Shown: positions 32,082-50,068 of the stretch, piece by piece
Layout of the letters: every line of letters starts with the position of its first letter
Numbering within the stretch: the stretch's first letter is position 1
From: Pelagibacterium flavum
GTDB taxonomy: Bacteria; Pseudomonadota; Alphaproteobacteria; Rhizobiales; Devosiaceae
DNA: 64,000 bases
Assembly: GCF_025854335.1 (NCBI RefSeq)
Contig: NZ_CP107716.1
Coordinates: forward strand, 2,659,001-2,723,000
Direction: 5' to 3'
Program-made: the position numbers and the translations under genes
Notes under the pieces: generated by a model
Told to the model about the DNA's origin: nothing
Seen by the model: the letters and a program-made list of their open reading frames with translations, nothing else
Databases searched by the model: none

Positions 32082-33245
32082 TCAGCGCCCGAGCGCGGCG
32101 AGCCAGTCGCTGAAATTCTTCGTGTCTTCTGAAGTGTTCGTGCCAAGATAGGCGGCGTGTTCAGCGGCGGCGTGCTCGCGTGCTTCGCGTGGGCTGTAGC
32201 CGAATTCCAGCTTGAATGCGCGGCTGAAGTTGGCCGGGGAATCAAAGCCGGTCGCTTCTGCGATTTCCGAAATAAGCTTCTGGTTGGCCGGATCGCAGAG
32301 TGCGGCATGGGAGGCCAATAGCCGCTTTCGCCTAATATAGTGCAGGACACCACCGCTGGACTCAAACAGTTGGTATAGCCGCGTACGGGAGGTGGCGAGC
32401 TCCTGGCACAGGCTCTCGGGCGTGAGATCGGGTGAGTCCAGGTTCTGTCTGATATAGCGGCGCGCCCGCTCCATCAGACCCACGCCATGGTGCTCCGCAG
32501 TATGCTTGTGCTCGACCGAGGACAGGCTTGTGATCACCATGTCGCGCAGCATGCCGACAATTCCGGGGAGATCTTCCGCAACAAGGCTGGGCAATGAGGC
32601 TTCCAGGCTGCTGACATAGTCGATCAACAGACGGGACAGATTGTCTGACAGGACTACATTATTGGCATCGTCGAGAACCGTTGCCGAGTCCCCGAAGAGA
32701 TCGCGGGGAAGATAAATCAAAACAGCTTCCGCATCGGTCATGCGCCCCCGGGACGGATGCCCCAGTGTCCTGAACTCCACCTTTCCGGGTTCGTTCTGCG
32801 CAACATGTCCATCGACCTCGGTCCAACTCCGTCCGCTACGCAGTATGGCCATGCGCCAATGGTCTATCGGACTGGCCCGCAGTTTCGCTGTCGACCGCCA
32901 GTAGCTGTGCGCGGCGACGCGGAGTTGCACAATGAGCGCCCCGCCCAAATTCCATGCGACGTGTTCGGCTGGAAATCCGTCCGCTGGTGCCTTGCCGTCC
33001 GGCAGCCGGTATTCGGCGACCGCCTCCATATAGGATTGCCATGCGCCGAATTGCTGCTCGTTGGGCATGTCCCGCGTGGAAAACTCGAGCGGCTTGAGAA
33101 CCGGGGGGCCGCGCATCGCGACTGCGTCGCCGTCGGAGTTTTCTTTTCGTTCCCAGCGCCGCCGCTCCAGCCTCGGCTTTGCCGTGGCCGATCCGCCTTC
33201 ATCGGTTTTCGACATGAGGCCTGGATGGTTCGGCCGGCCGTTCAT
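32082..33245 (-). CDS. AraC-family transcriptional regulator
   Basis: A 387-residue protein. The C-terminal 110 residues hold the AraC double helix-turn-helix (L-C-Q-E-L-A-T-S-R-T-R-L-Y-Q-L-F and D-S-P-A-N-F-S-R-A-F-K-L-E-F-G-Y-S-P). The N-terminal part resembles the AraC-binding-like domain of ActR/FeaR-type regulators. The start has a strong GGAGGGAGA site. The first 60 residues are polar and probably disordered. It sits alone between the fucose-type genes and the polysaccharide operon and may regulate neither. Confidence 0.82.
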   Translation of the reverse strand: MNGRPNHPGLMSKTDEGGSATAKPRLERRRWERKENSDGDAVAMRGPPVLKPLEFSTRDMPNEQQFGAWQSYMEAVAEYRLPDGKAPADGFPAEHVAWNLGGALIVQLRVAAHSYWRSTAKLRASPIDHWRMAILRSGRSWTEVDGHVAQNEPGKVEFRTLGHPSRGRMTDAEAVLIYLPRDLFGDSATVLDDANNVVLSDNLSRLLIDYVSSLEASLPSLVAEDLPGIVGMLRDMVITSLSSVEHKHTAEHHGVGLMERARRYIRQNLDSPDLTPESLCQELATSRTRLYQLFESSGGVLHYIRRKRLLASHAALCDPANQKLISEIAEATGFDSPANFSRAFKLEFGYSPREAREHAAAEHAAYLGTNTSEDTKNFSDWLAALGR

Positions 33246-33591
33246 CTGCTGTCTCCCTCCCCCTCTTGGCTGTCGTCTCGGGATACCGAATATAGCTTAC
33301 CACAGTGATCGACGGTGGAGTTGTTCCAGATCAAAGGACGTCCGAACGAGACATCGAACGCCATTCTCAGCTGCGAGAAAAAATGTACGGCGAGATAAGT
33401 TCGTGGATTCTGTGGTAATGACAGACCTCCCCAAAAGACCCTATCTTGCATGAACGGCATAACTGCGTACGGGTCCAATAGACATTAGACCCAGAATTGT
33501 TACCGCCGAGATAACTTCAAACACGACCAGTATCTTCATTCTGGATGGCGCCATTGTTACGCTGTTCACGGGACTTTTATTGGGTAAAGAC
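33246..33591. other. Non-coding gap upstream of the polysaccharide operon
   Basis: This 346-bp stretch has no convincing ORF. It should hold the promoters of the AraC gene and of the polysaccharide operon. Composition is more AT-rich than the flanks toward 33470-33590. I see no clear palindrome or riboswitch-like structure. Confidence 0.4.
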
Positions 33592-34575
33592 ATGACCGTA
33601 AAAACAGTACCGCAGCGAATTCTTGTTACTGGCGGCGCGGGTTTCCTCGGCTCACATTTGTGTGAAGCACTACTGCGCTCCGGCCATCACGTGACCTGCC
33701 TCGACAATTTTTCCACTGGCCTGCGCCGGAACGTGCGGCATCTGGAACATACCGATCGCTTCAACCTCATCGAGCACGACATCGTCACGCCGCTCAACCT
33801 GGAAGTCGATCAGATCTTCAACCTTGCCTGCCCGGCCTCACCTCCGCACTACCAGGCAGACCCGGTGCATACGACGTTAACCTGCGTTCTGGGTTCGATG
33901 AATCTTCTTGAACTCGCGCAGCGCCACGGCGCCCGCATTTTCCAGGCCTCCACCTCCGAAGTCTATGGCGACCCTTCGGTGCATCCCCAGGTCGAGAGCT
34001 ATTGGGGCAATGTCAATTCGTTCGGCCCCCGGGCCTGTTATGATGAAGGCAAGCGGTGCGCCGAGACATTGTTCTTTGATTATCACAAGAGCCATGGCGT
34101 CTCGATAAAGATCGCGCGCATTTTCAACACTTATGGGCCGCGCATGCGGCCCGACGACGGTCGTGTCGTTTCCAACTTCATCGTTCAGGCGCTCAAGGGC
34201 GACGACATCACCATCTACGGCGACGGCAGCCAGACGCGCTCCTTCTGTTTCGTGGACGACCTGATTGACGGCTTCCTGCGCCTCATGGCCTCTCCGGACA
34301 CGCTTACCGGACCGGTCAACCTCGGCAATCCTTGCGAATTCACCGTTGGCGAGTTGGCCAGACACGTGATCGAGCTCACCGGATCATCCTCGAAGATGGT
34401 GCATTGCCCACTGCCAACCGACGATCCCAGGCAGCGCCGCCCGAACATATCGCTCGCAATGCGCGAACTCGATTGGCAGCCGCGCACGACGCTCCTGGCC
34501 GGCCTCAAGAGAACCATCCGCCATTTCGATCGCCTTCTGGCGAACCCTGACCACGAATTCGCCGAGGTCGCATGA
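33592..34575 (+). CDS. UDP-glucuronate decarboxylase (UDP-xylose synthase)-like
   Basis: A 327-residue extended SDR with G-G-A-G-F-L-G-S-H, the strongly diagnostic [11 protein letters not shown] segment, S-T-S-E-V-Y-G-D-P and the catalytic Y-x3-K in A-C-Y-D-E-G-K-R. These mark UXS, which decarboxylates UDP-glucuronate to UDP-xylose. The start is ATG 33592, after GGGTAAAGA; an in-frame TTG lies at 33580. It is the first gene of the polysaccharide operon. UDP-glucuronate would come from the dehydrogenase encoded downstream. Confidence 0.88.
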
Positions 34576-35564
34576 TGTCGCCTGAGCGGATCCTTGTTAC
34601 CGGCGGCGCCGGCTTCATCGGAAGCCATACCGCAAAGCTGCTGAATGCCAGCGGTATCGAGCCCATTGTCTTCGACAACCTGTCGACCGGCAACCGCTCG
34701 TCGGTGCGCTGGGGTCCGTTCGTCCAGGGCGACATCCTGGACACCCCCCTGCTCGCCCACACAATCGCGCGCTACAAGCCAGCGGCCGTCATCCATTTCG
34801 CCGCCAGTGCCTATGTCGGCGAATCCGTCACGGATCCGGCGAAATACTACCGCAACAACCTTTCTGGCACGTACTCGCTGCTCGACGCCTGCCTCCAGAA
34901 CCGGCTCACCAACATCATCTTCTCTTCAAGCTGTGCGACCTACGGCGTGCCGACGCAGCTTCCGATCGGCGAAGACACGCCGCAGATGCCGATCAACCCC
35001 TATGGGCGCACAAAGCTGATTGCCGAGTACATGCTGCGCGATTATGCGGCCGCCTACGGCCTGCGATACGTAGCGCTGCGCTATTTCAACGCCTGCGGCG
35101 CCGACCCCGAAGGCGAAATCGGGGAATGGCACACGCCTGAAACACACCTGATCCCCCGCGCGCTGATGGCCACGGCCGGTATCATCCCGTTCCTTGAGGT
35201 CTTTGGAGACGACTACGAAACCGCTGACGGAACCTGCGTTCGCGACTATGTCCATGTCGCGGACCTAGCACGAGCCCACGTCCTTGCCTACAAACACCTG
35301 GCGGCAGGAGGCGCCGATCTGGCGATCAATGTGGGCACCGGTCGCGGCACCTCGATTCGCGAGATTCTTACAGCAATCCATAGCGTTACCGGGATCGAAG
35401 TGCCGGTTCGCATGCATCCGAGGCGTGCCGGCGATCCGCCTGCGCTCTATGCCGACCCCAGTCTGGCGCGCGAAACAATCGGCTTTTCAGCCAAACATTC
35501 CGACCTGGGAACCATCCTGCGCACGGCCGCTCCCTTCTTTGGGCTGGAGGTGTCGCCACAATGA
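34572..35564 (+). CDS. galE: UDP-glucose 4-epimerase
   Basis: A 330-residue epimerase with [17 protein letters not shown] and Y-x3-K in N-P-Y-G-R-T-K-L. It shows R-Y-F-N-A-C-G-A and the C-terminal sugar-binding region R-R-A-G-D-P-P. It interconverts UDP-glucose and UDP-galactose (or the pentose/uronate pair UDP-Xyl/UDP-Ara, or UDP-GlcA/GalA). It overlaps the UXS gene by four bases and the synthase gene by four, so it is devoted to this polysaccharide. Exact specificity among UDP-sugars is unclear. Confidence 0.88.
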
Positions 35565-37414
35565 AAACCGTCGTCAAAAAGCACATCGAGCCGGCAAAAA
35601 CAGGCAGCGAGCCGCTCCTGGTTTCCGTTTTCACCGAGTCCCAGAAGATCGAATATGTGGTCGGCAGCGCAATATGGTTTGCGGCCCTCGTCTATTTCTG
35701 GTCATGGTGGCTGAAGCCCGAGCACCACATCAGCGTGACCGGCTCGATCCTGGTTACCGCGACGCTTGCCTGGGTAACGCTTCTACCAGCCTATTTTCTG
35801 GTGGTCTTTTATCGCGGCCGGAAGCCGAACGGCCCGTTGCGGCTCCCTGAGGGCAGCCGGATCGCTATGGTCGTCACCAAGGCTCCGGCCGAACCATTCC
35901 CTGTGGTAGCCGAGACCCTCAAGGCGATGCTCGCCCAGGATCTGCCGCACGACACATGGCTGGCGGATGAAGATCCCTCCCCCGAGACGCTCGCCTGGTG
36001 CCGCGCGCATGGCGTATTCGTGAGCACCCGCAAGGGACGCGCCGATTACCATCGCACCACCTGGCCGCGGCGCACGCGCTGCAAGGAGGGCAATCTCGCC
36101 TTCTTTTACGATCATTACGGCTACGAGCGCTACGACTTCGTTGCGCAGCTCGACGCCGACCATGTTCCAGAACCCGGCTATCTCTTCGAAATGCTGCGGC
36201 CCTTTGCCGACCCCGCCATAGGCTATGTCTCGGCGCCCAGCATATGCGACCGCAATGCACATGAAAGCTGGTCGGCGCGCGGCAGGCTCTATGCGGAAGC
36301 AAGCATGCATGGCTCGCTCCAGGCCGGGTACAATGGCGGGCTCGCACCACTGTGTATCGGCTCACACTATGCCGTGCGCACCGAGGCGCTGAAGCAGATC
36401 GGCGGGCTGGGCCCCGAGCTTGCCGAAGATCATTCGACGACCCTGATGATGAACGCCCATGGCTGGCGCGGTGTGCACGCGCTGGACGCGATCGCCCATG
36501 GCGACGGGCCGCGCACCTTTGCCGACCTCGTGACCCAGGAATTCCAATGGTCGCGCAGCCTTGTCACGCTGTTGCTGCAGTATTCGCCTTCGCTGATCGG
36601 CAAGCTGCCGCCGCGCCTGAAGTTTCAGTTCCTGTTTTCACAGCTCTGGTATCCGCTGTTCGCTCTTTTTGCGGCGCTGATGTTCGCGATGCCGATCATC
36701 GCTCTGCTGCGCGGCGAAAATTTTGTCGCTGTCACTTATCCCGTTTTCCTCGCCCATTCCGCGCCTTTGTCCATCATCCTGATTGTGCTGGCCTATCGCT
36801 GGCGCGCCGGCGGCACCTTCCGCCCGGTTGACGCCAAGGTGCTGAGCTGGGAGGCAGCTCTGTTTCTGCTGGCACGGTGGCCCTGGGCGCTTGCGGGTTG
36901 CGCGGCTGCCGTCCGCGACTGGCTCACGGGGTCTTTCGTCGATTTCCGCGTCACGCCCAAAGGAACCTCCGAGGTCGATGCCCTGCCTATGCGCGTACTG
37001 GCGCCCTATGGCGTGCTCTCACTGGCCTCGATATTGCCCGTTCTGGCTGTGGCGGATGCCGGTGAAACGCGCGGCTTTTATCTTTTTGCCATCATAAACG
37101 CCACGCTCTACGCGGTCCTCCTGCTTGTGATCGTCGCCCAGCACGCTCGCGAAAATCTGGTCCGCGTGTGGGGCCGCCTCTATCGGCCCACCTTAACGGC
37201 AACCCTTTTGGCGCTCGTGGTACTGCCGGGCTTCGCCACCGTCGAGCGCGGAAAAGACGGGCTCGAGGCGCTCTCCTGGGGCGCGGGAAATTTCCGCATG
37301 TTCGAAGAAAGCTATTCGGTCGCCGGCGCCGGTATGGGCAGCCCGGGGCTCGTCAGAACCACCTTCAACCCGAGCTGGCGGCCAGACAATCCGTCGCACA
37401 ATGGCTTGCAATAA
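35561..37414 (+). CDS. Membrane glycosyltransferase family 2 polysaccharide synthase (BcsA-like)
   Basis: A 617-residue processive GT2. Two N-terminal membrane helices (about 35-50 and 60-85) precede the catalytic domain with L-D-A-D-H-V-P-E-P-G-Y (DxD, about 198-208) and L-A-E-D-H-S-T (ED motif). It has Q-E-F-Q-W in place of the usual Q-x-x-R-W, then several C-terminal membrane helices. The F-R-V-T-P-K-G segment is typical of cellulose-synthase-like enzymes, but no PilZ domain follows. It would polymerise and extrude a polysaccharide through the inner membrane using the UDP-sugars made by its neighbours. Confidence 0.85.
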   Translation: MKTVVKKHIEPAKTGSEPLLVSVFTESQKIEYVVGSAIWFAALVYFWSWWLKPEHHISVTGSILVTATLAWVTLLPAYFLVVFYRGRKPNGPLRLPEGSRIAMVVTKAPAEPFPVVAETLKAMLAQDLPHDTWLADEDPSPETLAWCRAHGVFVSTRKGRADYHRTTWPRRTRCKEGNLAFFYDHYGYERYDFVAQLDADHVPEPGYLFEMLRPFADPAIGYVSAPSICDRNAHESWSARGRLYAEASMHGSLQAGYNGGLAPLCIGSHYAVRTEALKQIGGLGPELAEDHSTTLMMNAHGWRGVHALDAIAHGDGPRTFADLVTQEFQWSRSLVTLLLQYSPSLIGKLPPRLKFQFLFSQLWYPLFALFAALMFAMPIIALLRGENFVAVTYPVFLAHSAPLSIILIVLAYRWRAGGTFRPVDAKVLSWEAALFLLARWPWALAGCAAAVRDWLTGSFVDFRVTPKGTSEVDALPMRVLAPYGVLSLASILPVLAVADAGETRGFYLFAIINATLYAVLLLVIVAQHARENLVRVWGRLYRPTLTATLLALVVLPGFATVERGKDGLEALSWGAGNFRMFEESYSVAGAGMGSPGLVRTTFNPSWRPDNPSHNGLQ

Positions 37415-37440
37415 CGAAAGGGCGCTTTGCGTACAAACCC

Positions 37441-38901
37441 ATGAAAATAGCAGTTATCGGAACCGGATATGTCGGCCTTGTCAGCGGCTGCTGCTTTGCC
37501 GAATGGGGACATGAGGTGGTCTGCGTCGACAAGAATGCAGAAAAGATTTCGGGTCTGCGACAAGGCAGACTGCCCATCTATGAGCCGGGTCTGGACGAGC
37601 TGCTGGAGCGGAACGCCGCCGCCGGCCGGCTGTCCTTTACCTGCGACGTCGCCGAAGCGGTGAAGGACGCCGCGGCCGTGTTCATTGCGGTGGGCACGCC
37701 CCCGCGACCCGGTCACGGGGACGCAGATCTTTCCTTCGTCTATATGGCGGCCAAGGAAATCGCGCCGCTCCTTGCGGACAATGCTGTGGTCGTCGTGAAA
37801 TCCACTGTCCCTGTCGGGACCGGCGATGCCGTCGAGAAAATCATCGTTACAGAGCGGGGTCGCGGCACCTTCTCAGTGGCATCCAATCCGGAATTTCTCA
37901 GGGAAGGCGTCGCCATTCGCGACTTCCTCGAACCCGACCGTGTCGTCATCGGGGTTGTTGACGAGCGTGCCCGCGAGGTTCTCACGACAATCTACGGCGA
38001 GCCGCTGGCAAAGACCAATTCGCCTATTGTCGTAACAGAGCGGCGCACGTCCGAACTCATCAAGTATGCCGCCAATGCTTTCCTGGCAACCAAGATCACC
38101 TTCATCAACGAGTTGGCGGATCTTTGCGAGCAGGTCGGCTCTGACGTGGAAGAGCTTGCGTTGGGCGTGGGGCTCGACAAGCGTATCGGTGCGAGCTTTC
38201 TCAATGCCGGTCCGGGTTACGGCGGCTCCTGCTTTCCCAAGGATACGCTGGCACTCTTGAGGACCGCACAGGATCACGGGGTGGCACTGCGCATCGTCGA
38301 GGAAGCGGTAAGTGTCAACGATGCACGCAAGCGCAAGATGGCGCTCAAGGTAATGGATGCCGTTGGCGGTGACATCGACGGACTCACCGTCGCCGTCTTT
38401 GGCCTGACCTTCAAGCCGGACACCGACGATATGCGCGAAGCCCCCTCGGTGCCGCTGATCGAAACGTTGCAGCGCTTCGGCGCCGTCATGCGCGCCCATG
38501 ATCCGATCGGCATGAAGAATGCCGCGCAGATGCTGGAAAATGTGGAATTTTTTGAAGATCCCTATGAGTGCGCGCGCGACGCCGATGCCATTGTCATCGT
38601 TACAGAGTGGGACAGCATCCAGCGCCTCGATCTTGTGCGCCTGCGCCGGATGATGCGCTCCCCCAACCTGGTCGATCTGCGCGGCGTGTTCAAAGCCGGC
38701 CGAGCGGAAGCCGCGGGTTTCCACTTCAGCGCTGTCGGCCGTCCCACAACGCGTCCAGCCGAACCCGTACCGAACCTTTCGGGCACCAGATTCCATCCGC
38801 CCAGAGCGGGAGCGGCAAGCGGGGAGCTCGTTCTTGGGGAGCGACATGATCGCCGGGCAAACCATCACCAACGTCGAGAGACAAATGGAGAATTGATATG
38901 A
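37441..38901 (+). CDS. ugd: UDP-glucose 6-dehydrogenase
   Basis: A 486-residue enzyme with G-T-G-Y-V-G-L-V-S-G, the E-P-G-L motif, P-E-F-L-R-E-G and the catalytic cysteine in G-Y-G-G-S-C-F-P-K-D. It oxidises UDP-glucose to UDP-glucuronate. The ATG at 37441 is at the conserved N-terminus. The normal family length is about 440, and the last 45-50 residues (from about T-T-R-P-A-E-P-V-P) are polar, arginine-rich and look like an added tail. The stop overlaps the glycanase start. It supplies precursor to the UXS and perhaps directly to the synthase. Confidence 0.92.
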   Translation: MKIAVIGTGYVGLVSGCCFAEWGHEVVCVDKNAEKISGLRQGRLPIYEPGLDELLERNAAAGRLSFTCDVAEAVKDAAAVFIAVGTPPRPGHGDADLSFVYMAAKEIAPLLADNAVVVVKSTVPVGTGDAVEKIIVTERGRGTFSVASNPEFLREGVAIRDFLEPDRVVIGVVDERAREVLTTIYGEPLAKTNSPIVVTERRTSELIKYAANAFLATKITFINELADLCEQVGSDVEELALGVGLDKRIGASFLNAGPGYGGSCFPKDTLALLRTAQDHGVALRIVEEAVSVNDARKRKMALKVMDAVGGDIDGLTVAVFGLTFKPDTDDMREAPSVPLIETLQRFGAVMRAHDPIGMKNAAQMLENVEFFEDPYECARDADAIVIVTEWDSIQRLDLVRLRRMMRSPNLVDLRGVFKAGRAEAAGFHFSAVGRPTTRPAEPVPNLSGTRFHPPRAGAASGELVLGERHDRRANHHQRRETNGELI

Positions 38902-39851
38902 ACAGGAAAACCAAATCCGCAGCCCTGGTGACTGCGATCACACTGGCGTCGGGAGCCGTGCTTGCGGATAACCTTCCCCGCGGCATTCCCGATCCAAGCT
39001 CGACCACGGCCGGCACCCTGTCCGACAAGCGGCCGGACATGGCTCCGCCTTCGATCATCTTCGGGGCCTACGATCCTCATGGGGATTTTGGCGACGATCC
39101 CAATTCGTCCATCGAGCATCTCTTCCTGCCTTGGGAGGACGTGGATCTTTCCACGCTTTCCCTGGCCGACGACTATGCTCTGCAGCGTGGCCGCTCGCTG
39201 CTCATCAGCGTGGAACCGTGGTCGTGGGACCGCGACTGGCGCGTATCCTCCCAAGAACTCCTTAACGGCATCCTGAGTGGCAGCTACGATGCCAACGTGG
39301 CGGCGGTGTGCTCAGAGGTGGCCGGGCTCACCAGTCCTGTTACCATCCGGTTCGCACAGGAAATGGACGAGGAGGACAACCAGTTCTCCTGGGCGCAGTG
39401 GTCCGGCCCCGAATACATCGAGGTTTATCGACGCTTCGTAACCGAGTGCCGCAACTACCTGCCGAACGCCCAGTTCATGTGGTCGCCGAAGGGCAATGCG
39501 AACCTGCAGGACTATTATCCCGGTGATGATGTCGTGGATGTCATCGGCCTGTCGGTCTTCGGCTATCAGCCATATGATCAGGCGATAGCCGGGAGCGACC
39601 AGACTTTTGCCGAGCGTCTGATGCCCGGCTACACGCTGGTCGACGACTACGGGAAACCGATCATGGTCGCAGAGCTCGGCTATGAAGGTGACCAGACCTA
39701 TGTCCGTCAATGGGCGCAGTCCGTAACCAGGCGTCACGCAGAGTTCCCTGACCTCACAGCCGTTGTCTATTTCAATGATGGCGAGGTCTATCCGTGGCCG
39801 GACAATTTCGGATTTCCCAACTGGCGCGTTGTCCAGGAAACGACGAACTGA
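38898..39851 (+). CDS. Secreted glycoside hydrolase, GH26-like
   Basis: A 317-residue protein with an N-terminal signal peptide (MNRKTKSAALVTAITLASGA, cleavage near L-A-D). The region R-F-A-Q-E-M-D-E-E carries a likely acid/base glutamate and V-A-E-L-G-Y-E-G a likely nucleophile, in the order of GH26 (clan A) enzymes. GH26 members cut mannans, xylans and related beta-glycans. Encoded last in the polysaccharide operon with ATGA overlap and GGAGAA upstream, it probably trims or releases the polymer made by the synthase. The specificity is not readable. Confidence 0.78.
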   Translation: MNRKTKSAALVTAITLASGAVLADNLPRGIPDPSSTTAGTLSDKRPDMAPPSIIFGAYDPHGDFGDDPNSSIEHLFLPWEDVDLSTLSLADDYALQRGRSLLISVEPWSWDRDWRVSSQELLNGILSGSYDANVAAVCSEVAGLTSPVTIRFAQEMDEEDNQFSWAQWSGPEYIEVYRRFVTECRNYLPNAQFMWSPKGNANLQDYYPGDDVVDVIGLSVFGYQPYDQAIAGSDQTFAERLMPGYTLVDDYGKPIMVAELGYEGDQTYVRQWAQSVTRRHAEFPDLTAVVYFNDGEVYPWPDNFGFPNWRVVQETTN

Positions 39852-40504: not shown

Positions 40505-42226
40505 ATGTCATCGCGTTCGTTGAGTGAATCCCGGCTCAAAGACCTTCTAGCGAATACACTTGACATTGCTTCGCTCTACGATCGACGTCTTCGGCTCACC
40601 CATTTCGGGGCCCAATTCAAGAAACAATATGGTGGCGTTGCTGAAATCGGCTCACCGATCTGGGATATCTACCCGATCTTTCGAGATCCGGTATTGCTCC
40701 AGGAGCTTGAGCGGATAAGCGGAGGCGGAGCGGCAATTGAATTGACGTTGCCGCCGTCTTCAACCTCTTCGGCAAGTTCGGCGAGAATATTTGCTGCGGC
40801 CGACGGGATTGGCGTAATTGAAGTTGCGGAGTCGGTGGCACTTGGCTCGATGGACGCCAAAACGGATGTGGACCATCATACACTCCTCCATCAGGCCACC
40901 CACGACATACTGACCGGGCTGCAGAACCGTCGGCAGTTTGGCGACCGGTTGCAGGCGGCCCTTTCCGATGCCCGCGGCAGCGACGACAAGGTGGCCCTGC
41001 TGCAGATCGACCTTGATGGCTTCAAGGCCGTCAACGACACGCTTGGTCACGACGTCGGCGACGCCCTGCTCCAGCTTGTGGCAAACCGCATTCAGATTGC
41101 ACTGGGCGATGGAGAGACCGCCTTTAGAAATGCGGGCGACGAGTTCACGGTCATTCAGACTGGGCGAGAGCAGCCAGCCGCCGCCGATCGTCTTGCAAAG
41201 GCAATCCTCGATCTTGTGAAGGCCAGGTATATCATCAGCGATGTTCCGGTCTTCGTTGGCGCGAGTATTGGAATATCAGTGGCACCCGATCACGGCGCCA
41301 GCACGGACGAGATGATAAAGGCCGCCGACGTCGCCCTCTACGCCGCCAAAAAAGACGGAAGAGGCTGCTCGCGGGTTTACGACCGATCGATGATGCTCCT
41401 GCTCGAGGAACGCGAAAATCTCCGGCGCGACCTCGCAATGGCCCTCCAGAGAGGGCAATTCCATCTCCAGTATCAGCCTATCGTACACCCATCGCTTGCG
41501 TTGACCGGGTTTGAAGCGTTGCTGAGCTGGCGGCATCCCAAACTCGGTCTCATTCCGCCCCGCGTGTTTATTCCCGTCGCAGAGGCTGACGGCCACATGG
41601 ATCAGATCGGGAAATGGGTCCTTGAAGAAGCCTGCAAACAAGCGCTGACCTGGCCCCCGAACCTCTCGGTGGCCGTCAATCTGTCACCGGCGCAGTTTCT
41701 CAGCGGCACCATCACTGACACGGTTGCGCAAATACTGGACAGAACCGGCATTCAGGCCGAACGGTTGGACCTCGAGATAACCGAGACGATCCTGCTCGAA
41801 ACAACAGTCGACAACATCGATACACTTAACACCCTGAACGTATTGGGCGTGAAAGTATCACTCGACGATTTCGGAACGTACTATTCTTCTTTGAGTTATC
41901 TGAAGACATTCCCTTTCGATATCATGAAAATAGACAAGTATTTCATAGAGGATGTCGAGACCAGCTCAAAATCCAAGGCGATCGTTCGCAACATTATCAA
42001 TCTGGCGCATAGCCTGGGGATAAGCGTAACAGCCGAAGGCGTGGAAACCGCGGGGCAAGCCGAGTGGTTGCGGGAACAAGGGTGCGATCGTCTTCAGGGC
42101 TACTTTATCGCAAGACCAATGGCACCAAGGGCTGCGCACGCCTTTATTGAGCGCGCTACGAGGAACCGCACTTCCAATACAGAAGAAGTCAATCTGGACG
42201 TCCGGACACAAGGGGCGCAAATGTGA
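40505..42226 (+). CDS. Diguanylate cyclase/phosphodiesterase-like protein (GGDEF-EAL)
   Basis: A 573-residue cytoplasmic protein with a PAS-like N-terminus (about 1-115), a GGDEF domain (about 130-295) and an EAL domain (about 305-560). The GGDEF signature reads A-G-D-E-F (210-214), with Ala for the first Gly, and the RxxD inhibitory site upstream is absent. The EAL part keeps E-A-L (337-339), D-D-F-G-T (454-458) and E-G-V-E, but Y replaces G after D-D-F-G-T. It may therefore be mainly a c-di-GMP phosphodiesterase or sensor. The start follows GGGAGAGGCGG. It heads the six-gene signalling operon. Confidence 0.9.
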   Translation: MSSRSLSESRLKDLLANTLDIASLYDRRLRLTHFGAQFKKQYGGVAEIGSPIWDIYPIFRDPVLLQELERISGGGAAIELTLPPSSTSSASSARIFAAADGIGVIEVAESVALGSMDAKTDVDHHTLLHQATHDILTGLQNRRQFGDRLQAALSDARGSDDKVALLQIDLDGFKAVNDTLGHDVGDALLQLVANRIQIALGDGETAFRNAGDEFTVIQTGREQPAAADRLAKAILDLVKARYIISDVPVFVGASIGISVAPDHGASTDEMIKAADVALYAAKKDGRGCSRVYDRSMMLLLEERENLRRDLAMALQRGQFHLQYQPIVHPSLALTGFEALLSWRHPKLGLIPPRVFIPVAEADGHMDQIGKWVLEEACKQALTWPPNLSVAVNLSPAQFLSGTITDTVAQILDRTGIQAERLDLEITETILLETTVDNIDTLNTLNVLGVKVSLDDFGTYYSSLSYLKTFPFDIMKIDKYFIEDVETSSKSKAIVRNIINLAHSLGISVTAEGVETAGQAEWLREQGCDRLQGYFIARPMAPRAAHAFIERATRNRTSNTEEVNLDVRTQGAQM

Positions 42227-42744
42227 TGCAGGGCGAAAGCGGCAAGCCACATTTACCGGATGCCTACGAACCCATGGTCGAGATCGCGCTGCCCCGAGGC
42301 GATTTCTATTCGTTCTGGCAGAACTGCGATCTCATATCAACGTACCTCGCACGGATGATCAGCCACAATCGGTCGGATCTGGTTCGTTACACCAATCTGT
42401 TCTCATCGGCCGTCAATGAGCTTTTGGAGATGGTGTTTCGTACGCATCAATCTGAAGGAAAGTTCACCTGCCGTGTATCCCGGCGGGGCGACCTTGAGAG
42501 AGTTTACATAGAATTTCCGTGCTCGCATGGAGAGCGCCTCTACTACGAAGAAGCCTTAAGTCAGGCAACGGAAAGCAGCAGGCTCGAGCGATACCTGGCT
42601 TCTATGTCCGGCAAGGAGGGACCTGGCGGAGAAACCGCGCTGCTCGAACTTGCCCTTGACTATGGCGCCACCCTCCAGCTCGAGCATCCGGACGACAATA
42701 CGCTGGCGATCATTGTGGATCTTCCCCTGGAGACCTTGCCATGA
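42226..42744 (+). CDS. Degenerate HATPase-like protein of the slr1658/SiaB type
   Basis: A 172-residue soluble protein. The segment L-F-S-S-A-V-N-E-L-L-E-M-V-F (about 58-71) looks like the N-box of GHKL kinases related to slr1658/SiaB, but the second Asn expected in N-E-L-x-E-N is Met. The glycine-rich lid (G-x-G-L) is replaced by E-T-A-L-L-E-L-A. The C-terminal L-A-L-D-Y-G-A-T-L aligns in place with the D-Y-G segment of the second HATPase protein in the operon. It may bind a partner without kinase activity. The start overlaps the upstream stop (TGATG). The family call is inference from motifs and context. Confidence 0.6.
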   Translation: MQGESGKPHLPDAYEPMVEIALPRGDFYSFWQNCDLISTYLARMISHNRSDLVRYTNLFSSAVNELLEMVFRTHQSEGKFTCRVSRRGDLERVYIEFPCSHGERLYYEEALSQATESSRLERYLASMSGKEGPGGETALLELALDYGATLQLEHPDDNTLAIIVDLPLETLP

Positions 42745-43919
42745 ACCGCCACGACGCTTCGACGCGTTATGGAACGCAGTACGATCCCAACAATCAGCAG
42801 TTCCTGATCTCGGGCGTGATGCGACCGCAGATTGCCGACGAACTCGCTCCCAGCCTCGCTCTGCTCAATGAAGCAATTGAGCATGTTCGCGGGGTTCTCT
42901 ATCTCGATGTCAAACGCCTCGTGCAGATGAACAACACTGCCTTTCATGCCTTTGCGCGCGTGATCCTCGAGGCCTGCCGTTCGCGACCCGACCTGCGGTT
43001 TGTGATTGTTACCTCAAGCGTTGTCGGCTGGACGACGCGGAAGTTCGGCCATCTGGCCCGTATTGAACCCAGCGTCGACGTCCAGGAATACGACAGTGAT
43101 TTCTATCCGGGGCAAGGCTTTCTGGAAGGCGGCGGGTTCATTCCCATCCTGCGCACGCAAACGAAGCTGACCTGGCATCATGAGCGGACGATCCTGCCAA
43201 GGCACGGGATGGCGCATGGCATCGCCATAGCAGATATCTGTTGTGGCATCGGCGATTTCGCCGTGCTCGTTCAAAAGGAATTCAAGCCGTCACGGATTGT
43301 CGCGCTCGATCACTCTCGGCCAAGTCTCGCCTACGCGCGCAAAGTGGCCGCCGAATTTGACATTCGCGGGATTGAGTACACCTACGGCGATGCTTCAGAA
43401 ATGCTGCTCGAGGCGGATCAGTTCGATCTCGTTACCTGCCGCCACTCTCTTCAGATATTCAATCGGCCGGAGCTCATACTCAAAGAGCTCTATCGCATCT
43501 GCAAACCCGGTGGACGGGTCTATGTCACCAACGAAAAAAACTCGCACTGCCTCGGCGAGCCGCGTGCCGAAAGCATTCAGTGGACCTACAACGAGGTTGC
43601 GAGACTTTTCAGCTTTTTCGACATGGATGTGGAGCTCGGCCCCAAGAGCCGACGGTATCTGATCGACGCGGGCTTCGACGACGTTCGCGTCGAATCGTTC
43701 ATGGTTACCAACCTCGATGGGGACCCGCAGGCATTCGCCGACATCATCGCCGCCTGGGAGGAGGTCTATGCGGGGGAGATGGCCGAAAAGCGCGGCGACT
43801 CCGCAGAATTTATCGAACGCTTTCGTCAGGGTTTCCAGGACCACATCTTCGCAGCACTCCATCCCAAGGGTTACGCCGGCTGGCCCATCTGGGTGGCATC
43901 GGGGCAAAAACCGCAATGA
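42741..43919 (+). CDS. Fusion of slr1659/STAS-like domain and SAM-dependent methyltransferase
   Basis: A 392-residue protein. Residues about 10-150 look like an anti-sigma-antagonist/STAS-type domain (G-V-L-Y-L-D-V-K-R-L-V-Q-M-N-N-T-A-F), where the usual phospho-acceptor S-S-G is N-N-T (64-66). Residues 160-390 form a class I methyltransferase with motif I A-D-I-C-C-G-I-G-D-F (164-173), an acidic end of beta-2 (L-D-H-S), G-D-A-S and F-D-L-V-T-C-R-H-S-L. The methyl acceptor is unknown. Four-base overlaps join it to both neighbours. A partner-switch input controlling a methyltransferase is the natural reading. Confidence 0.7.
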   Translation: MNRHDASTRYGTQYDPNNQQFLISGVMRPQIADELAPSLALLNEAIEHVRGVLYLDVKRLVQMNNTAFHAFARVILEACRSRPDLRFVIVTSSVVGWTTRKFGHLARIEPSVDVQEYDSDFYPGQGFLEGGGFIPILRTQTKLTWHHERTILPRHGMAHGIAIADICCGIGDFAVLVQKEFKPSRIVALDHSRPSLAYARKVAAEFDIRGIEYTYGDASEMLLEADQFDLVTCRHSLQIFNRPELILKELYRICKPGGRVYVTNEKNSHCLGEPRAESIQWTYNEVARLFSFFDMDVELGPKSRRYLIDAGFDDVRVESFMVTNLDGDPQAFADIIAAWEEVYAGEMAEKRGDSAEFIERFRQGFQDHIFAALHPKGYAGWPIWVASGQKPQ

Positions 43920-46279
43920 ACGTAGAAAAGAAGACCTCGCGCTTCGGGCTGCGATCGTTCCGGGCCAAGTTCCTGCTCGTGGTCGGCGGTGCCGTGCTTT
44001 TTGACCTTACGGTGATCGGGGGCCTGGCGTTGTGGAACGTGACGAACCTGTCACGAAACGCAACCGCGGAGGTCGGCGAAGGGCTTACTGCCGCAACCGA
44101 GGAATACATTCTCTCTTACGCGGAGACGACGGCGGCGCAGGCCAACCTTCTGATCAGCCGGGTACACGCTGATGTGGTCGCCCTGGCCGGCGTGCTGCAA
44201 GACCAGATCGATAATCCCAACGAGCAAAATGCGATTGGGTCTACCGTCTCCGTCGTATCTCCGCAATCGACGACCGTATCTTATAATCCTGAGGGAGACT
44301 GGGCGCAAAACGAGCCCGGAGCACCCTCGGTTGTAAGCGTTTGGGGATATCTGCTGGACGAGCAAAATCAGCCATTCCCGAGCGTCCGGGACGAAATCCG
44401 CGACAGCGCAATACTAGACCTTGTCGCCCCCAGCATTCTGCGCAGCGGTGCAGACAAGCTGCAGATGTATTATATCGGGCCCACGGAACGGCCGATTTTC
44501 AGAACCGTTCCCTATACCGACCAGGCCCAGACCTTTGATCGGCTCTATCCGGGGCACAACGAGGCTGAATTCTGGGAGTTTTTCTTCCCGGGCATCTACC
44601 CCTCCTGGCAGCAATGGATCGAGACCCCCTCCGCTCGTCCGGTCGCCACCGATATAACGCAAACGGCGCCATACACCGACGCCATTACCGGCGAACTCAT
44701 CGTCAGCTTTTTTCATCCGTTGTGGACGCGTGATCGAACCGGAATTGCCGGCGTCGCCGGGGCCGATATCACGCTCGATCAACTGGCCGAAATCGTTGAA
44801 AGCATCGAAATCGCCGATGTGGGATTCGGCTTTCTGGCCATGTCGAATGGAAACGTTGTGGCCATCAATCCCGAAGGCGAGTCGATCATTGGCCTGCGTT
44901 CCTCGAGTGGCGAGCAGGCCCAGGGGGTCACCGGCCTGGAGCGGTCCCTGCGCGGTAGCGTCCAGCCGGCAATTGCCTCAATGTCACTCGATCAAGACGC
45001 CGAGGGGGAAATCGAGCACATCACGCTCAATCAGAATGGCGAGGCCGTCCCCTATATGACTGTTCTTACAAGATTGGCCCCGACAAATCTCTGGAGCGCC
45101 GGGCCGATCACGCGCGAGGCAATGCTGATCGGCGTCGTGGTTCCCGAACAGGCGATATATGCCTCACTCTATAGCGCGCAGGCCAGCATCGCGCGCGCGA
45201 CCAACCAGACGCTCATCTATCAGCTCGGAGCCATCGGTCTGGCTCTTATGGTTGTGTTTGCGGCGGTTTTCGGCATTTCCAAGAGGATAACAGCCGGTCT
45301 GAGCGAACTTGCAAGCGCGGCCCAGCGCATCCAGTCGAAAGATTACAGTATTCGGGTATCCATTCCCACGCGCGACGAAGTCGGTGAAGCCGGAGTTGCC
45401 TTCAACCGGATGGCCGAGGAAATCAGCTTTCACACCGAAAACCTTGAGCAAATCGTTGACGATCGGACAAAGGAGCTCGGCAAGGCCCACCAGGAGATCC
45501 TGGCGCTCAACACCAAGCTGAAAAGCGAAAATATCCGGCTGGGGGCCGAACTTGAGGTTGCACGCCAAATCCAGATGATGGTCTTGCCCAGGGCCCTGGA
45601 ACTGCAGGCAATCCCCGACGTCGATATCGCAGCCTACATGCAGCCTGCCGACGAGGTTGGTGGCGACTACTATGATGTCCTGCAAGATGGACCCCGCGTA
45701 AAGATCGGGATCGGCGACGTGACCGGGCACGGCCTGGAAAGCGGCGTGCTCATGATGATGGTACAATCTGTGACGCGCGCCCTGCAGGAGACAGGAAAGT
45801 CCGATCCACGCCAATTCCTGAGCTGGCTCAACCGGGCGATCTACAAGAACCTAGAGCGCACCGACTGGGACAAGCACCTGTCGCTGGCGTTTATCGACTA
45901 CGAGGACGAGCGCCTCACCTTGTATGGCCAACATGAAGACGTGATTGTCATGCGAGCCGGCGGAGAGATTGAAACCATCGATACAATGGATCTTGGCTTT
46001 CCCATCGGCCTGGAACTGGACATCGCGCCGTTTATCACTACACGCGACATCCCCTTCGGCGCGGGCGATGCCATCATCCTCCACACCGATGGGGTAACCG
46101 AGGCCGAGGATACAAATGGCCGCATGTTCGGACTGGAACGCCTCCGCCAAAGCGCCTTCCAACATCACAAATGCAGTGCCGAAGAAATCAAATCCAAGGT
46201 TCTTGAAGATCTTATGGCCTTCATCGGAACGCAGAAGATATACGACGACATAACTCTTATAGTTATGAAGCACAGGTGA
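43916..46279 (+). CDS. Membrane SpoIIE/PP2C-type phosphatase with periplasmic sensor and HAMP domain (SiaA-like)
   Basis: A 787-residue protein. A membrane helix (about 18-42), a large periplasmic Cache-like sensor (about 45-425) and a second helix (about 433-455) lead to a HAMP domain (456-510), a coiled coil (510-550) and a PP2C/SpoIIE domain. Metal-binding aspartates are visible: G-G-D-Y-Y-D (584), G-D-V-T-G-H-G (601), H-T-D-G-V-T-E (725) and D-D-I-T (777-778). This is the layout of Pseudomonas SiaA and of RsbU-like phosphatases, which dephosphorylate a STAS protein on Ser/Thr. The start ATG 43916 overlaps the upstream stop. Confidence 0.9.
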   Translation: MNVEKKTSRFGLRSFRAKFLLVVGGAVLFDLTVIGGLALWNVTNLSRNATAEVGEGLTAATEEYILSYAETTAAQANLLISRVHADVVALAGVLQDQIDNPNEQNAIGSTVSVVSPQSTTVSYNPEGDWAQNEPGAPSVVSVWGYLLDEQNQPFPSVRDEIRDSAILDLVAPSILRSGADKLQMYYIGPTERPIFRTVPYTDQAQTFDRLYPGHNEAEFWEFFFPGIYPSWQQWIETPSARPVATDITQTAPYTDAITGELIVSFFHPLWTRDRTGIAGVAGADITLDQLAEIVESIEIADVGFGFLAMSNGNVVAINPEGESIIGLRSSSGEQAQGVTGLERSLRGSVQPAIASMSLDQDAEGEIEHITLNQNGEAVPYMTVLTRLAPTNLWSAGPITREAMLIGVVVPEQAIYASLYSAQASIARATNQTLIYQLGAIGLALMVVFAAVFGISKRITAGLSELASAAQRIQSKDYSIRVSIPTRDEVGEAGVAFNRMAEEISFHTENLEQIVDDRTKELGKAHQEILALNTKLKSENIRLGAELEVARQIQMMVLPRALELQAIPDVDIAAYMQPADEVGGDYYDVLQDGPRVKIGIGDVTGHGLESGVLMMMVQSVTRALQETGKSDPRQFLSWLNRAIYKNLERTDWDKHLSLAFIDYEDERLTLYGQHEDVIVMRAGGEIETIDTMDLGFPIGLELDIAPFITTRDIPFGAGDAIILHTDGVTEAEDTNGRMFGLERLRQSAFQHHKCSAEEIKSKVLEDLMAFIGTQKIYDDITLIVMKHR

Positions 46280-46283
46280 AGCA

Positions 46284-46844
46284 ATGAAGGTACAGTTTGG
46301 AATACCGGAAATCGCTTTTCATTCCAGTGATAGCAGAATTACGGTCAAAATTCTTGATGGCCCGCTGGATATCGGCTGGCATCATTGCGCCATAACATCA
46401 GGCTTCATAGCCGATTTTTACGCACAGCAATTCCAATCCCTTCACAATGAATACAAATACATAAAACATAACATTGAATATCTCGCGAACGAGCTTATCG
46501 AGAACGCGATAAAGTTTCGCTTCCGCGGCGACATTACTATCGAATCGATAATTGACTCGGACAGTTTCATAATAAAAGTATCGAATGAAATCGATGAACG
46601 AACATCCAGCGACTTCGAGACCTATCTCGCAGGCATAACCTCTGGCGATCCGGAAGATCTTCTTATCCAGAAGATCGAGCACAATGCCGAAAACCCCAAC
46701 TCGAACGCGTCGGGACTTGGGCTGCTGACCTTGATGAGCGATTACGGCTCCCGCCTGGCCTGGCGATTTGATCGTCCCGAAGAAAGGATGCGGATGCGCG
46801 TGGAAACTTTCGGGTCGATACCCATCTTCACCAACCAACTGTAA
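46284..46844 (+). CDS. HATPase-like protein kinase, slr1658/SiaB type
   Basis: A 186-residue protein with a preserved N-box Y-L-A-N-E-L-I-E-N-A-I-K-F (67-79) and a lid/G2 motif A-S-G-L-G-L-L-T-L-M-S-D-Y-G (about 142-155), consistent with a GHKL ATPase. In SiaB-like systems this protein phosphorylates the STAS partner and is opposed by the PP2C phosphatase. It starts 4 bp after the phosphatase gene with AGGTGA upstream. Its 5' half is richer in A and T than the neighbours (e.g. around 46440-46480), hinting at separate ancestry. Confidence 0.72.
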   Translation: MKVQFGIPEIAFHSSDSRITVKILDGPLDIGWHHCAITSGFIADFYAQQFQSLHNEYKYIKHNIEYLANELIENAIKFRFRGDITIESIIDSDSFIIKVSNEIDERTSSDFETYLAGITSGDPEDLLIQKIEHNAENPNSNASGLGLLTLMSDYGSRLAWRFDRPEERMRMRVETFGSIPIFTNQL

Positions 46845-46855
46845 GGCTACATATC

Positions 46856-47194
46856 ATGCAGATCAAAGCAGAAACTTACAGCGTATGGACGGAAGGAAGC
46901 GACGTCTATTTTGACGGCACAATGAGGCTGTCGGGGACCCAGGCCTATCAGCCGATACTCGAGCTCTTGCAGGAAGTGCTTGCCGAAAAGCCTCCATCAA
47001 TGACCCTGGATCTGACGAACCTTGAGTTTCTCAACTCTTCGGGAATCAACCTGCTAGCGAAGTTCACCATCGAGTTGCGAAAGCACTCCGATACAAGGCT
47101 CGTTGTGCGGGCGACATCCGAAATTCCGTGGCAAGCCAAGTCCATACGGAATCTGCAGAAGCTGCATCCGGGCCTGACGCTGATCATGACCTGA
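46856..47194 (+). CDS. STAS-domain protein, slr1659/SiaC-like
   Basis: A 112-residue single-domain protein with the STAS core T-L-D-L-T-N-L-E-F-L-N-S-S-G-I-N-L-L (50-67). Ser61 or Ser62 before Gly63 is the expected phosphorylation site. It would be phosphorylated by the HATPase encoded just upstream and dephosphorylated by the PP2C protein. It would then bind an effector such as the GGDEF-EAL protein or the fused methyltransferase. It ends the six-gene operon and converges on guaA. Confidence 0.8.
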   Translation: MQIKAETYSVWTEGSDVYFDGTMRLSGTQAYQPILELLQEVLAEKPPSMTLDLTNLEFLNSSGINLLAKFTIELRKHSDTRLVVRATSEIPWQAKSIRNLQKLHPGLTLIMT

Positions 47195-49219: not shown

Positions 49220-50068
49220 GTCGTGTTGACAAAGTGGATTCCCAAATCAGGTGAAGTCTGATTCAACACTCCTCTTTATGGGGAGCGATGATGGCACGCG
49301 GCGATCTGACCGATGAAGAGTGGGCAGTAATCGAAGGGTTCTTGCCCACAGAGCGCGGACGGAAATCCCGCCCTGCTCATGATAATCGGCGTTTTCTCAA
49401 CGGCATGCTGCATGTGCTGCGGGTTGGCTGCCCCTGGCGCGACATGCATGAGCGCTACGGCAAGTGGAACTCTGTCTATGTCCGGTTCCGGCGCTGGGCC
49501 GAACAGGGCGTCTGGGATGCCATCCTTGAAACGCTGGTCCAGATGGGGCTGACCGATGACTGGCAGCATATGATCGACAGCACCACAGTTCGGGGCCATG
49601 TATCGGCAGCCGGCGCAAAAGGGGGACTCACAAGGAGGCTTTTGGTCGATCACGCGGCGGCTTTACGTGCAAAATCCACGCCCGCTGTGACAATCAGGGA
49701 CGCCCTCTTGGCTTTGTCCTGACAGGCGGGCAAGCCTCGGACTATGGCGCGGTCGGCGAACTCATGGCCCTGCCGGTCAACAAGCCAAAGGCACTTCTGG
49801 CCGATAAGGGCTACGACGGCGATGCTGTTCGAGAAGCCCTGCTGCTACAGGGCATCTTGCCAGTCATCCCGCCAAAGGCCAATCGCAAGGTTCATATTCC
49901 CTGCGACTTCTCCCGTTACAGAGACCGCAACCGCATCGAGCGCATGTTCGGGTATCTCAAGCACATGCGTCGCATCGGCACCCGGTATGAGAAAACGGCT
50001 CTGTCATTCGCAAGCTTCCTCAACCTTGCAGCCATCCGCAGGTGGCTAAAAGACTTTGTCAACAGGAC
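49220..50068 (+). mobile_element. IS5-family insertion sequence, copy 2 (849 bp)
   Basis: Same length, ends and encoded proteins as copy 1 at 12433-13281, in the opposite orientation. It is flanked by CTAG at 49216-49219 and 50069-50072. Removing the element and one CTAG restores a continuous sequence in which TAG is the stop codon of the glycine-rich gene. The insertion therefore hit exactly at that stop. Confidence 0.9.
49288..49722 (+). CDS. IS5-family transposase, N-terminal frame (orfA), copy 2
   Basis: Identical at protein level to orfA of copy 1 (144 residues, first catalytic Asp in M-I-D-S-T-T-V-R). The A4G5 run where a minus-one shift would join orfB is at 49617-49625. Confidence 0.85.
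   Translation: MMARGDLTDEEWAVIEGFLPTERGRKSRPAHDNRRFLNGMLHVLRVGCPWRDMHERYGKWNSVYVRFRRWAEQGVWDAILETLVQMGLTDDWQHMIDSTTVRGHVSAAGAKGGLTRRLLVDHAAALRAKSTPAVTIRDALLALS

What the first reader, a model, noticed from the sequence alone, without database searches (positions are those of the whole stretch)
40505..47194. Six-gene partner-switch cassette joined to c-di-GMP signalling and a methyltransferase
Six genes overlap or are spaced by at most 11 bp: GGDEF-EAL, degenerate HATPase, STAS-like/methyltransferase fusion, periplasmic-sensing SpoIIE/PP2C phosphatase, intact HATPase, STAS. Established knowledge: Pseudomonas SiaA (PP2C), SiaB (kinase), SiaC (STAS-like) and SiaD (diguanylate cyclase) form a partner switch controlling c-di-GMP. 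Here the same four roles are present, plus a second kinase-like and a second STAS-like partner, the latter fused to a methyltransferase. The inference is a two-output switch driving c-di-GMP turnover and a methylation reaction. It lies next to a synthase-type polysaccharide operon, a plausible c-di-GMP target.
Basis: partly seen in the sequence, partly recalled or inferred. Interest (0 to 1): 0.85.

Follow-up and report, generated by a model that had tools for sequence, protein, structure and literature searches.

The report
Bgr-type partner switch with fused methyltransferase
This six-gene cassette is a relative of a known rhizobial switch (Bgr) that tunes the signal molecule c-di-GMP and surface sugars, and its most conserved but least understood part is a methyltransferase carried with a second, apparently dead copy of the switch.

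Summary
In detail: six co-directional genes at 40505-47194, with the stated overlaps and gaps. It is not a new system. The order is conserved in 79 of 80 named loci (the 80 closest of 274 found). A CuxR orthologue and an arabinose-polysaccharide (APS)-type operon lie next to it. The small proteins do match: slr1658/slr1659 superfamilies for the active pair, a SiaB/SpoIIAB/RsbW-like fold for the degenerate kinase. The 'two-output phospho-switch' is not supported as written. In 101 of 101 readable cassettes the second kinase lacks the ATP-box Asn; in 99 of 102 the methyltransferase's STAS domain lacks the acceptor Ser. The second pair looks like a pseudokinase and pseudosubstrate. Yet the STAS-methyltransferase is the best conserved of the six. 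In two genome samples (289 and 297) it occurs in exactly the genomes with the intact kinase, while the GGDEF-EAL gene is missing beside 13 of the 102 cassettes read. Bold reading left open: in Alphaproteobacteria the methyltransferase is the primary output and c-di-GMP control an accessory. Its substrate is unknown.

The parts
40505..42226 (+). GGDEF-EAL protein with a fast-evolving N-terminal domain (BgrR orthologue)
   Evidence: Pfam EAL/GGDEF. AGDEF motif and Mg-binding Asp 87/87, EAL catalytic positions 86-87/87. No RxxD I-site in the window copy. N-terminal 125 residues 41% mean pairwise identity against 73-79% for the two enzyme domains.
42223..42744 (+). Degenerate slr1658-type kinase (pseudokinase; BgrS position); start probably ATG 42226
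42741..43919 (+). STAS domain (about 8-114) fused to a class I SAM methyltransferase (about 150-392); BgrT position
   Evidence: NF047705 40.3 bits over 8-113, Methyltransf_25 63.7 bits. hhalign to STAS 94.3%, E 1e-7. Acceptor position N65 in 96/102; motif I and D190 essentially invariant. 979 proteins at E<=1e-3, best 120 listed, those all near full length.
43916..46279 (+). Membrane SpoIIE/PP2C phosphatase with a Cache-like periplasmic part and HAMP (BgrU orthologue)
   Evidence: Pfam SpoIIE 128 bits, HAMP 48 bits, dCache_1 26 bits below its cut-off. PP2C metal-site Asp residues invariant 102/102. Only SpoIIE match in the genome at E<=1e-3.
46284..46844 (+). Intact slr1658-superfamily kinase (BgrW orthologue)
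   Evidence: NF047703 179.5 bits, over cut-off. N-box Asn 102/102; SGLGL box 100-102 of 102 at each place.
46856..47194 (+). STAS phosphoprotein, slr1659 superfamily (BgrV orthologue), predicted acceptor Ser61
   Evidence: NF047705 143 bits, over cut-off. N-S-S-G 102/102.
32082..33245 (-). AraC-type CuxR orthologue (c-di-GMP-binding activator of the APS operon in S. meliloti)
   Evidence: 385 bits, residues 25-383, to PDB 5nla, which PMC7499043 names CuxR (passage). HTH_18.
33580..34575 (+). uxs-like NAD-dependent epimerase/dehydratase (APS-type operon)
   Evidence: Pfam Epimerase. 76% to the S. meliloti 1021 copy beside cuxR.
34572..35564 (+). uxe/galE-like UDP-sugar 4-epimerase
   Evidence: TIGR01179 399 bits.
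35561..37414 (+). Membrane glycosyltransferase, ApsS-like synthase
   Evidence: Glyco_trans_2_3. 77% to the S. meliloti 1021 copy.
38898..39851 (+). Glycoside hydrolase family 26 protein of the same operon
   Evidence: PF02156 27 bits, over cut-off. 64% to the S. meliloti 1021 copy.

Best explanation
The cassette is a Bgr-type partner switch. A membrane phosphatase with a periplasmic sensor (BgrU-like) and an intact kinase (BgrW-like) set the phosphorylation of Ser61 of the STAS protein (BgrV-like). That state controls the adjacent GGDEF-EAL enzyme (BgrR-like), and the c-di-GMP made is read, in this genome, most likely by the neighbouring CuxR orthologue, which switches on the APS-type polysaccharide operon between them. 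The second pair is a pseudokinase (BgrS-like) and a pseudosubstrate STAS domain fused to a SAM methyltransferase (BgrT-like). It probably cannot run the phosphorylation cycle, so it most likely forms a standing complex that free, unphosphorylated BgrV-like STAS, or the kinase, breaks or makes by competition, thereby gating the methyltransferase. Shown: gene content, order, predicted fold of the pseudokinase, residues kept and lost, orthology, CuxR/APS linkage. Reported by others for S. meliloti: BgrU/BgrW act on BgrV and so on BgrR. Inferred: the roles in this organism, the CuxR/APS output, the dead-pair complex, and methyltransferase activity and substrate.
For: Six genes collinear in 79 of 80 named loci, S. 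meliloti included. The S. meliloti genome searched has one SpoIIE match and one intact slr1658 kinase, both in this cassette, so this must be the Bgr system described in PMC8457831 and PMC7647112 (passages); 'BgrSTUWV' matches the gene order. Own genome: one SpoIIE, two slr1658, two slr1659 matches, all here. Active pair intact in 102 rows, second pair degenerate. CuxR orthologue; a cuxR homologue lies beside 50 of 80 cassettes in two layouts. The own genome's best BgsA match is 40% and stops at residue 565 of 671; only 28 of 140 residues of the c-di-GMP-binding tail of S. meliloti BgsA are identical in it, so the glucan synthase that Bgr serves in S. meliloti is not clearly present.
Against: The primary Bgr paper could not be read, so the assignment of S and T to the degenerate kinase and the methyltransferase fusion rests on gene order. 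27 of 80 loci show neither cuxR nor bgsA within the stretch read. No interaction or phosphorylation data for the second pair. The GGDEF-EAL enzyme keeps both catalytic sites, so the net sign of its effect is not known here. Three of 102 fusions do have Ser at the acceptor place.
Confidence: 0.75

Rival explanations
1. The methyltransferase is the original and obligatory output of this switch in Alphaproteobacteria, and the GGDEF-EAL gene is a later add-on in one set of lineages.
For: Order sample: STAS-methyltransferase in 13 of 297 genomes, intact kinase in the same 13. Class sample: the same 3 of 289. GGDEF-EAL absent beside the cassette in all 7 genomes of genus g63 and in 6 of the 13. STAS-MT is the most conserved member: median 77% to the window against 47-68%, mean pairwise 75% against 53-71%.
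Against: One genome labelled only 'same phylum', G664, has GGDEF, kinase, STAS and phosphatase with no STAS-MT or pseudokinase on its 16 kb contig; an unfused FkbM-type methyltransferase ORF lies on that contig on the other strand. So c-di-GMP coupling also exists without the fusion and may be older. Loci were fetched with the fusion as query, which favours high identity of the fusion. No rooted tree was made.
Confidence: 0.35
2. One reading: two parallel phospho-switches, the second STAS phosphorylated to control methylation.
For: Both pairs are encoded together and the second pair's genes overlap. Thr follows the acceptor position in 54 of 102 rows, and 3 of 102 have Ser at the acceptor position.
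Against: Acceptor position is Asn in 96 of 102, Met in 2, Ala in 1. The following residue is Ala, Val, Met, Leu or Ile in 48, and Val or Ile in all 13 cassettes without GGDEF-EAL. The kinase partner lacks the N-box Asn 101/101.
Confidence: 0.07
3. The STAS-methyltransferase is a catalytically idle scaffold or decoy that titrates the kinase or the STAS protein.
For: Pseudosubstrate STAS domain; precedents for STAS scaffolds are recalled, not tested.
Against: The methyltransferase half is more conserved (81% mean pairwise) than the STAS half (61%), and the SAM-binding motif is essentially invariant: the opposite of what a decoy predicts.
Confidence: 0.1
4. It is a member of the SiaABCD family.
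For: Same four roles. SiaA model 123.5 bits and SiaD model 106.7 bits partial matches. A chain of the SiaB-SiaC complex is the top structural match of the pseudokinase.
Against: All Sia models far below cut-off: SiaA 123.5/700, SiaB 17.3/85, SiaC 13.1/150, SiaD 106.7/290.
Confidence: 0.03

Closest known systems
Bgr partner-switching system of Sinorhizobium meliloti (BgrR with BgrS-T-U-W-V), controlling mixed-linkage beta-glucan via c-di-GMP (Baena et al. 2019; seen only through passages of citing papers PMC8457831, PMC7647112, PMC11619594)
   Same: Same six genes in the same order; the S. meliloti 4H41 and 1021 loci match at 76-77% (methyltransferase), 67% (phosphatase), 46% (kinase), 57% (STAS) and 53% (GGDEF-EAL).
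   Different: In the window the cassette abuts a CuxR/APS-type operon and no clear BgsA orthologue was found in the genome. The GGDEF-EAL gene overlaps the next gene, where the median over 82 loci is a 138 bp gap.
SiaABCD of Pseudomonas aeruginosa
   Same: PP2C phosphatase, partner-switch kinase and STAS-like protein control a diguanylate cyclase; the pseudokinase model has the fold of partner-switch kinases.
   Different: Different families by curated models. Has a second, degenerate pair and a methyltransferase; GGDEF-EAL instead of GGDEF. Reported sign differs: unphosphorylated SiaC activates SiaD, whereas a citing paper says the phosphorylated S. meliloti STAS protein promotes cyclase activation.
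CuxR / APS operon of S. meliloti (uxs1-uxe-apsS-apsH1-apsE-apsH2)
   Same: CuxR orthologue next to uxs, uxe, glycosyltransferase and GH26 genes in the same order.
   Different: The window's operon has a UDP-glucose dehydrogenase (about 37432-38901) between the glycosyltransferase and the GH26 gene, where S. medicae has a DUF995 gene.
slr1658/slr1659 pair (NCBIfam NF047703, NF047705)
   Same: The intact kinase and the STAS protein score over cut-off.
   Different: The second pair scores far below cut-off, and its STAS is fused to a methyltransferase.

Membership tests
Bgr partner switch (S. meliloti) | Six genes R-S-T-U-W-V: GGDEF protein, two further genes, phosphatase, kinase, STAS, in this order | tested here: met
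   79 of 80 named loci collinear with the window, S. meliloti included. The S. meliloti genome searched has no other SpoIIE match or intact slr1658 kinase. Gene names from PMC8457831 and PMC7647112 passages.
Bgr partner switch (S. meliloti) | STAS protein with phosphorylatable Ser, kinase with intact ATP box, PP2C with metal-binding Asp | tested here: met
   102 of 102 for STAS Ser61, kinase Asn74 and PP2C Asp positions.
Bgr partner switch (S. meliloti) | Output is mixed-linkage beta-glucan through the BgsA c-di-GMP domain | tested here: inconclusive
   Best own-genome match 40% over residues 12-565 of 671, with only a short weak BgsB-like stretch beside it and 28 of 140 tail residues identical to S. 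meliloti BgsA. S. meliloti against Mesorhizobium BgsA is 66%.
Bgr partner switch (S. meliloti) | Phosphorylation of BgrV controls cyclase activity of BgrR | not testable with these tools
   Needs biochemistry; reported for S. meliloti in citing papers only.
SiaABCD | Proteins score over the SiaA, SiaB, SiaC and SiaD curated cut-offs | tested here: not met
   123.5/700, 17.3/85, 13.1/150, 106.7/290 bits.
SiaABCD | Coiled-coil stalk on the cyclase that binds the STAS-like protein | tested here: inconclusive
   The N-terminal domain of the GGDEF-EAL protein looks PAS-like by eye and is variable; a stalk-like motif written from other loci was found in 0 of 87. The SiaD motif itself was not searched and the domain was not modelled.
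slr1658/slr1659 superfamilies | Over NCBIfam cut-off | tested here: met
   Intact kinase 179.5 and STAS 143 against 100. The second pair is below cut-off (39.5, 40.3).
CuxR | Full-length similarity to the solved CuxR and adjacency to a uxs-uxe-synthase operon | tested here: met
   385 bits over residues 25-383 to 5nla; operon 33580 onward.
CuxR | Binds c-di-GMP | not testable with these tools
   Needs a binding assay.

The most novel reading that the evidence does not exclude
In Alphaproteobacteria this is first of all a partner switch for a methyltransferase. An active kinase/STAS/phosphatase cycle is wired to a dead duplicate pair (pseudokinase plus pseudosubstrate STAS) that carries the enzyme, with phosphorylation state passed between the two pairs by partner exchange. 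The c-di-GMP branch (BgrR), the only output described for S. meliloti in the passages I could read, is an accessory output present in some lineages only.
Probability: 0.35. Interest if true: 0.75.

Novelty: new member of a known kind. Interest (0 to 1): 0.48.

Why it matters
The system itself is known in S. meliloti. The survey shifts attention to the part least explained: a very conserved STAS-methyltransferase that follows the intact kinase genome by genome in two samples, even where the c-di-GMP enzyme is missing. If the methyltransferase is a regulated output, partner switching would directly control a methylation reaction, and a pseudokinase/pseudosubstrate pair would be the relay; both can be tested in a standard laboratory rhizobium. 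The shared neighbourhood with cuxR (50 of 80 loci) and with a BgsA gene (16 of 80) suggests one switch serving two c-di-GMP-activated polysaccharides.

Tried and rejected
SiaABCD membership: rejected on curated cut-offs. A new, undescribed cassette: rejected once the citing passages on Bgr were found. Phosphorylation of the fused STAS: disfavoured by residue counts. I first took the Thr/Ala/Val position as the acceptor (my note says so); following SiaC N67-T68-S69 (passages), and SpoIIAA/RsbV from recall, the acceptor is the residue before it, where Asn stands in 96 of 102. Neither position has a conserved acceptor.

Literature: slr1658 or slr1659 gave 4 papers, listing only, none opened. SMb20447-SMb20452 gave none. 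'partner switch' + methyltransferase + STAS + c-di-GMP gave 2, neither opened. The six Bgr names gave 528 papers, 25 listed, mostly unrelated uses of the letters; a search for papers citing the Bgr title gave 7, of which I saw passages of four. Two searches combining STAS domain, methyltransferase and partner switching or SpoIIE gave 0. The primary papers on Bgr, CuxR and S. meliloti c-di-GMP are not held, so 'not described' for the second pair means not found in these searches.

Rows and bias: the 80 named loci are the best 80 of 274 relatives, found with the fusion as query. The 102-row tables are not 102 independent lineages (99 distinct fusion sequences): L036 is 99% identical to the window in the fusion, and L155 and L157 lie on contigs of the same length as those of L052 and L060. 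Dropped by script filters: the pseudokinase of L133 and the GGDEF-EAL proteins of L092 and L100; the L061 GGDEF-EAL gene is split over two frames and only one piece of it is in the table. The class search listed 232 of 289 genomes with some match; three (over 570 bits) cover the fusion, and the others listed score at most 60 bits and match mainly the methyltransferase domain. Five of the ten phylum-sample genomes are the same as genomes of the order sample (same contig numbers and coordinates).


Full report
WHAT IS THERE. The six ORFs lie at the stated coordinates on the + strand and overlap or abut as described. Pfam and NCBIfam place them as a GGDEF-EAL protein; a weak slr1658-superfamily protein; a weak slr1659-superfamily STAS domain fused to a class I methyltransferase; a SpoIIE phosphatase with HAMP and a weak Cache-like periplasmic part; a full slr1658-superfamily kinase (179.5 bits, cut-off 100); and a full slr1659-superfamily STAS protein (143 bits, cut-off 100). 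In the whole 3.93 Mb genome these are the only SpoIIE match, the only two slr1658 matches and the only two slr1659 matches at E<=1e-3. The set is therefore self-contained.

WHAT IT IS. Related loci were fetched from named genomes with the fusion as query: the best 80 of 274 relatives, matching it at 73% identity or more. The six genes are collinear in 79; in L100 the GGDEF-EAL gene is inverted. S. meliloti 4H41 is among them (L087), and S. meliloti 1021 pSymB carries it too (L116). The S. meliloti genome behind L087 holds one SpoIIE match and two slr1658 matches, one strong and one weak, all within this cassette. Papers state that in S. [quoted passage not shown] The cassette is therefore the Bgr system or its orthologue; letters S and T for the degenerate kinase and the fusion are inferred from gene order. 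The primary paper (Baena et al. 2019) could not be read.

NEIGHBOURHOOD. Upstream in the window stands an AraC-type gene (32082-33245, - strand) that matches the solved CuxR protein over nearly its full length (385 bits; 5NLA named as CuxR in a PMC7499043 passage), divergent from a uxs-uxe-glycosyltransferase-UDP-glucose dehydrogenase-GH26 operon. In S. [quoted passage not shown] Of 80 loci, 50 have a cuxR homologue at 40% identity or more within the stretch held, 18 a uxs gene and 16 a BgsA synthase gene; 27 have neither cuxR nor BgsA. Among the 69 loci with a full 8 kb on both sides, 43 have cuxR. The 50 fall into two layouts, 25 upstream on the same strand and 25 downstream on the opposite strand. 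No random expectation was computed. The BgsA query came from the Mesorhizobium locus L046; its S. meliloti counterpart (66%) carries all five residues that PMC5567048 numbers in the BgsA tail, at one constant offset (passages). In the window's genome the best match is 40% identical and ends at residue 565 of 671, and 28 of 140 residues of the S. meliloti tail are identical, so the CuxR/APS branch is the likelier output here. This is an inference.

DISTRIBUTION, AND A RESULT THAT CUTS BOTH WAYS. A class-wide sample of 289 genomes had the full fusion in 3 and the intact kinase (E<=1e-20) in the same 3. An order-wide sample of 297 genomes had the fusion (E<=1e-60) in 13 and the intact kinase in the same 13. 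The GGDEF-EAL gene does not follow: it is absent beside the cassette in all 7 carriers found in genus g63, out of 28 genomes of that order searched, and in 6 of those 13 (the thirteenth, L108, has it). Eleven of these 13 GGDEF-less loci have a divergent soluble SpoIIE phosphatase nearby. The fusion is also the most conserved cassette protein (median identity to the window over the 80 loci 77.3%; phosphatase 67.5, STAS 61.4, GGDEF-EAL 59.0, intact kinase 51.9, degenerate kinase 47.5); choosing loci by the fusion favours this, but the ranking also holds between the window and the 13 GGDEF-less loci (64% against 33-58%). Within the Alphaproteobacteria sampled the methyltransferase is thus the constant partner and the c-di-GMP enzyme the variable one. 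Against this as the ancestral state: in a phylum sample of 397 genomes, 10 have the intact kinase at E<=1e-12. Nine of them, the own genome included, carry the fusion, and all nine the GGDEF-EAL gene. The tenth, G664, labelled only 'same phylum', has GGDEF, kinase, STAS, a periplasmic binding protein and phosphatase without fusion or pseudokinase on its 16 kb contig; an unfused FkbM-type methyltransferase ORF lies on that contig on the other strand (30 bits, cut-off 23). Its kinase scores as the cyanobacterial type (253 bits, cut-off 200). Samples are small and relatives are not independent.

MECHANISM, WITH DEGREE OF PROOF. Reported by others in S. meliloti: phosphatase and kinase act on the STAS protein, which controls the cyclase. 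One citing paper says the phosphorylated form promotes activation (PMC11619594 passage), the opposite of SiaC, where the unphosphorylated form does. Shown here: conservation of the catalytic positions checked for that cycle, and loss of the N-box Asn and of the acceptor Ser in the second pair. Inferred: the second pair forms a standing complex whose partner exchange with the active pair gates the methyltransferase. The SiaC stalk mechanism may not apply unchanged, because the GGDEF-EAL protein has a variable N-terminus that looks PAS-like by eye, and 0 of 87 contain the stalk-like motif seen in other loci (the same pattern hits 1 of 102 fusions, so it is short). Substrate of the methyltransferase: unknown; the best solved-structure matches are SAM methyltransferases of varied substrates.

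VERDICT. Real, well observed, and already known in kind. What deserves follow-up is the conserved pseudokinase/STAS-methyltransferase pair.

Noticed in passing
L122:5613-6578, L123:3195-4160, L152, L154, L156 (soluble SpoIIE) and L175:8322-9140 (GGDEF): The soluble SpoIIE phosphatases beside GGDEF-less cassettes and the GGDEF protein of the G664 cassette share a short helical-looking motif (in several of the phosphatases L-Y-[EQ]-A-T-I-x-H-G-E-A-V-E-D-Q-L); the GGDEF protein seems by eye to have it twice, recalling the two SiaC-binding motifs on the SiaD stalk. Possibly a STAS docking motif.
   Followed up: partly
L175:4485-9140: A single-pair slr1658/slr1659 cassette with GGDEF, periplasmic binding protein and phosphatase, in a genome labelled same phylum only; its kinase is of the cyanobacterial slr1658 type.
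   Followed up: partly
window 49288-50072: Two ORFs on the + strand match the two parts of an IS4/5-family transposase (DUF4096 98 bits; DDE_Tnp_1_2 45 bits), just past guaA.
   Followed up: partly
L117:13486-14004, L118:7459-7974: Public annotation names the degenerate kinase 'ubiquinone biosynthesis methyltransferase UbiE', apparently carried over from the neighbouring fusion.
   Followed up: yes
L122:4065-5285 and L150:1561-6096: Two GGDEF-less cassettes lie near ABC-transporter genes that look like spermidine/putrescine importers (Pfam ABC_tran plus TOBE_2 for L122; by eye for L150).
   Followed up: no
G000:C1:1070558-1072216: A second cellulose/curdlan-synthase-like glycosyltransferase in the window's genome, 40% to BgsA but with a tail barely alike to the c-di-GMP-binding part.
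   Followed up: partly
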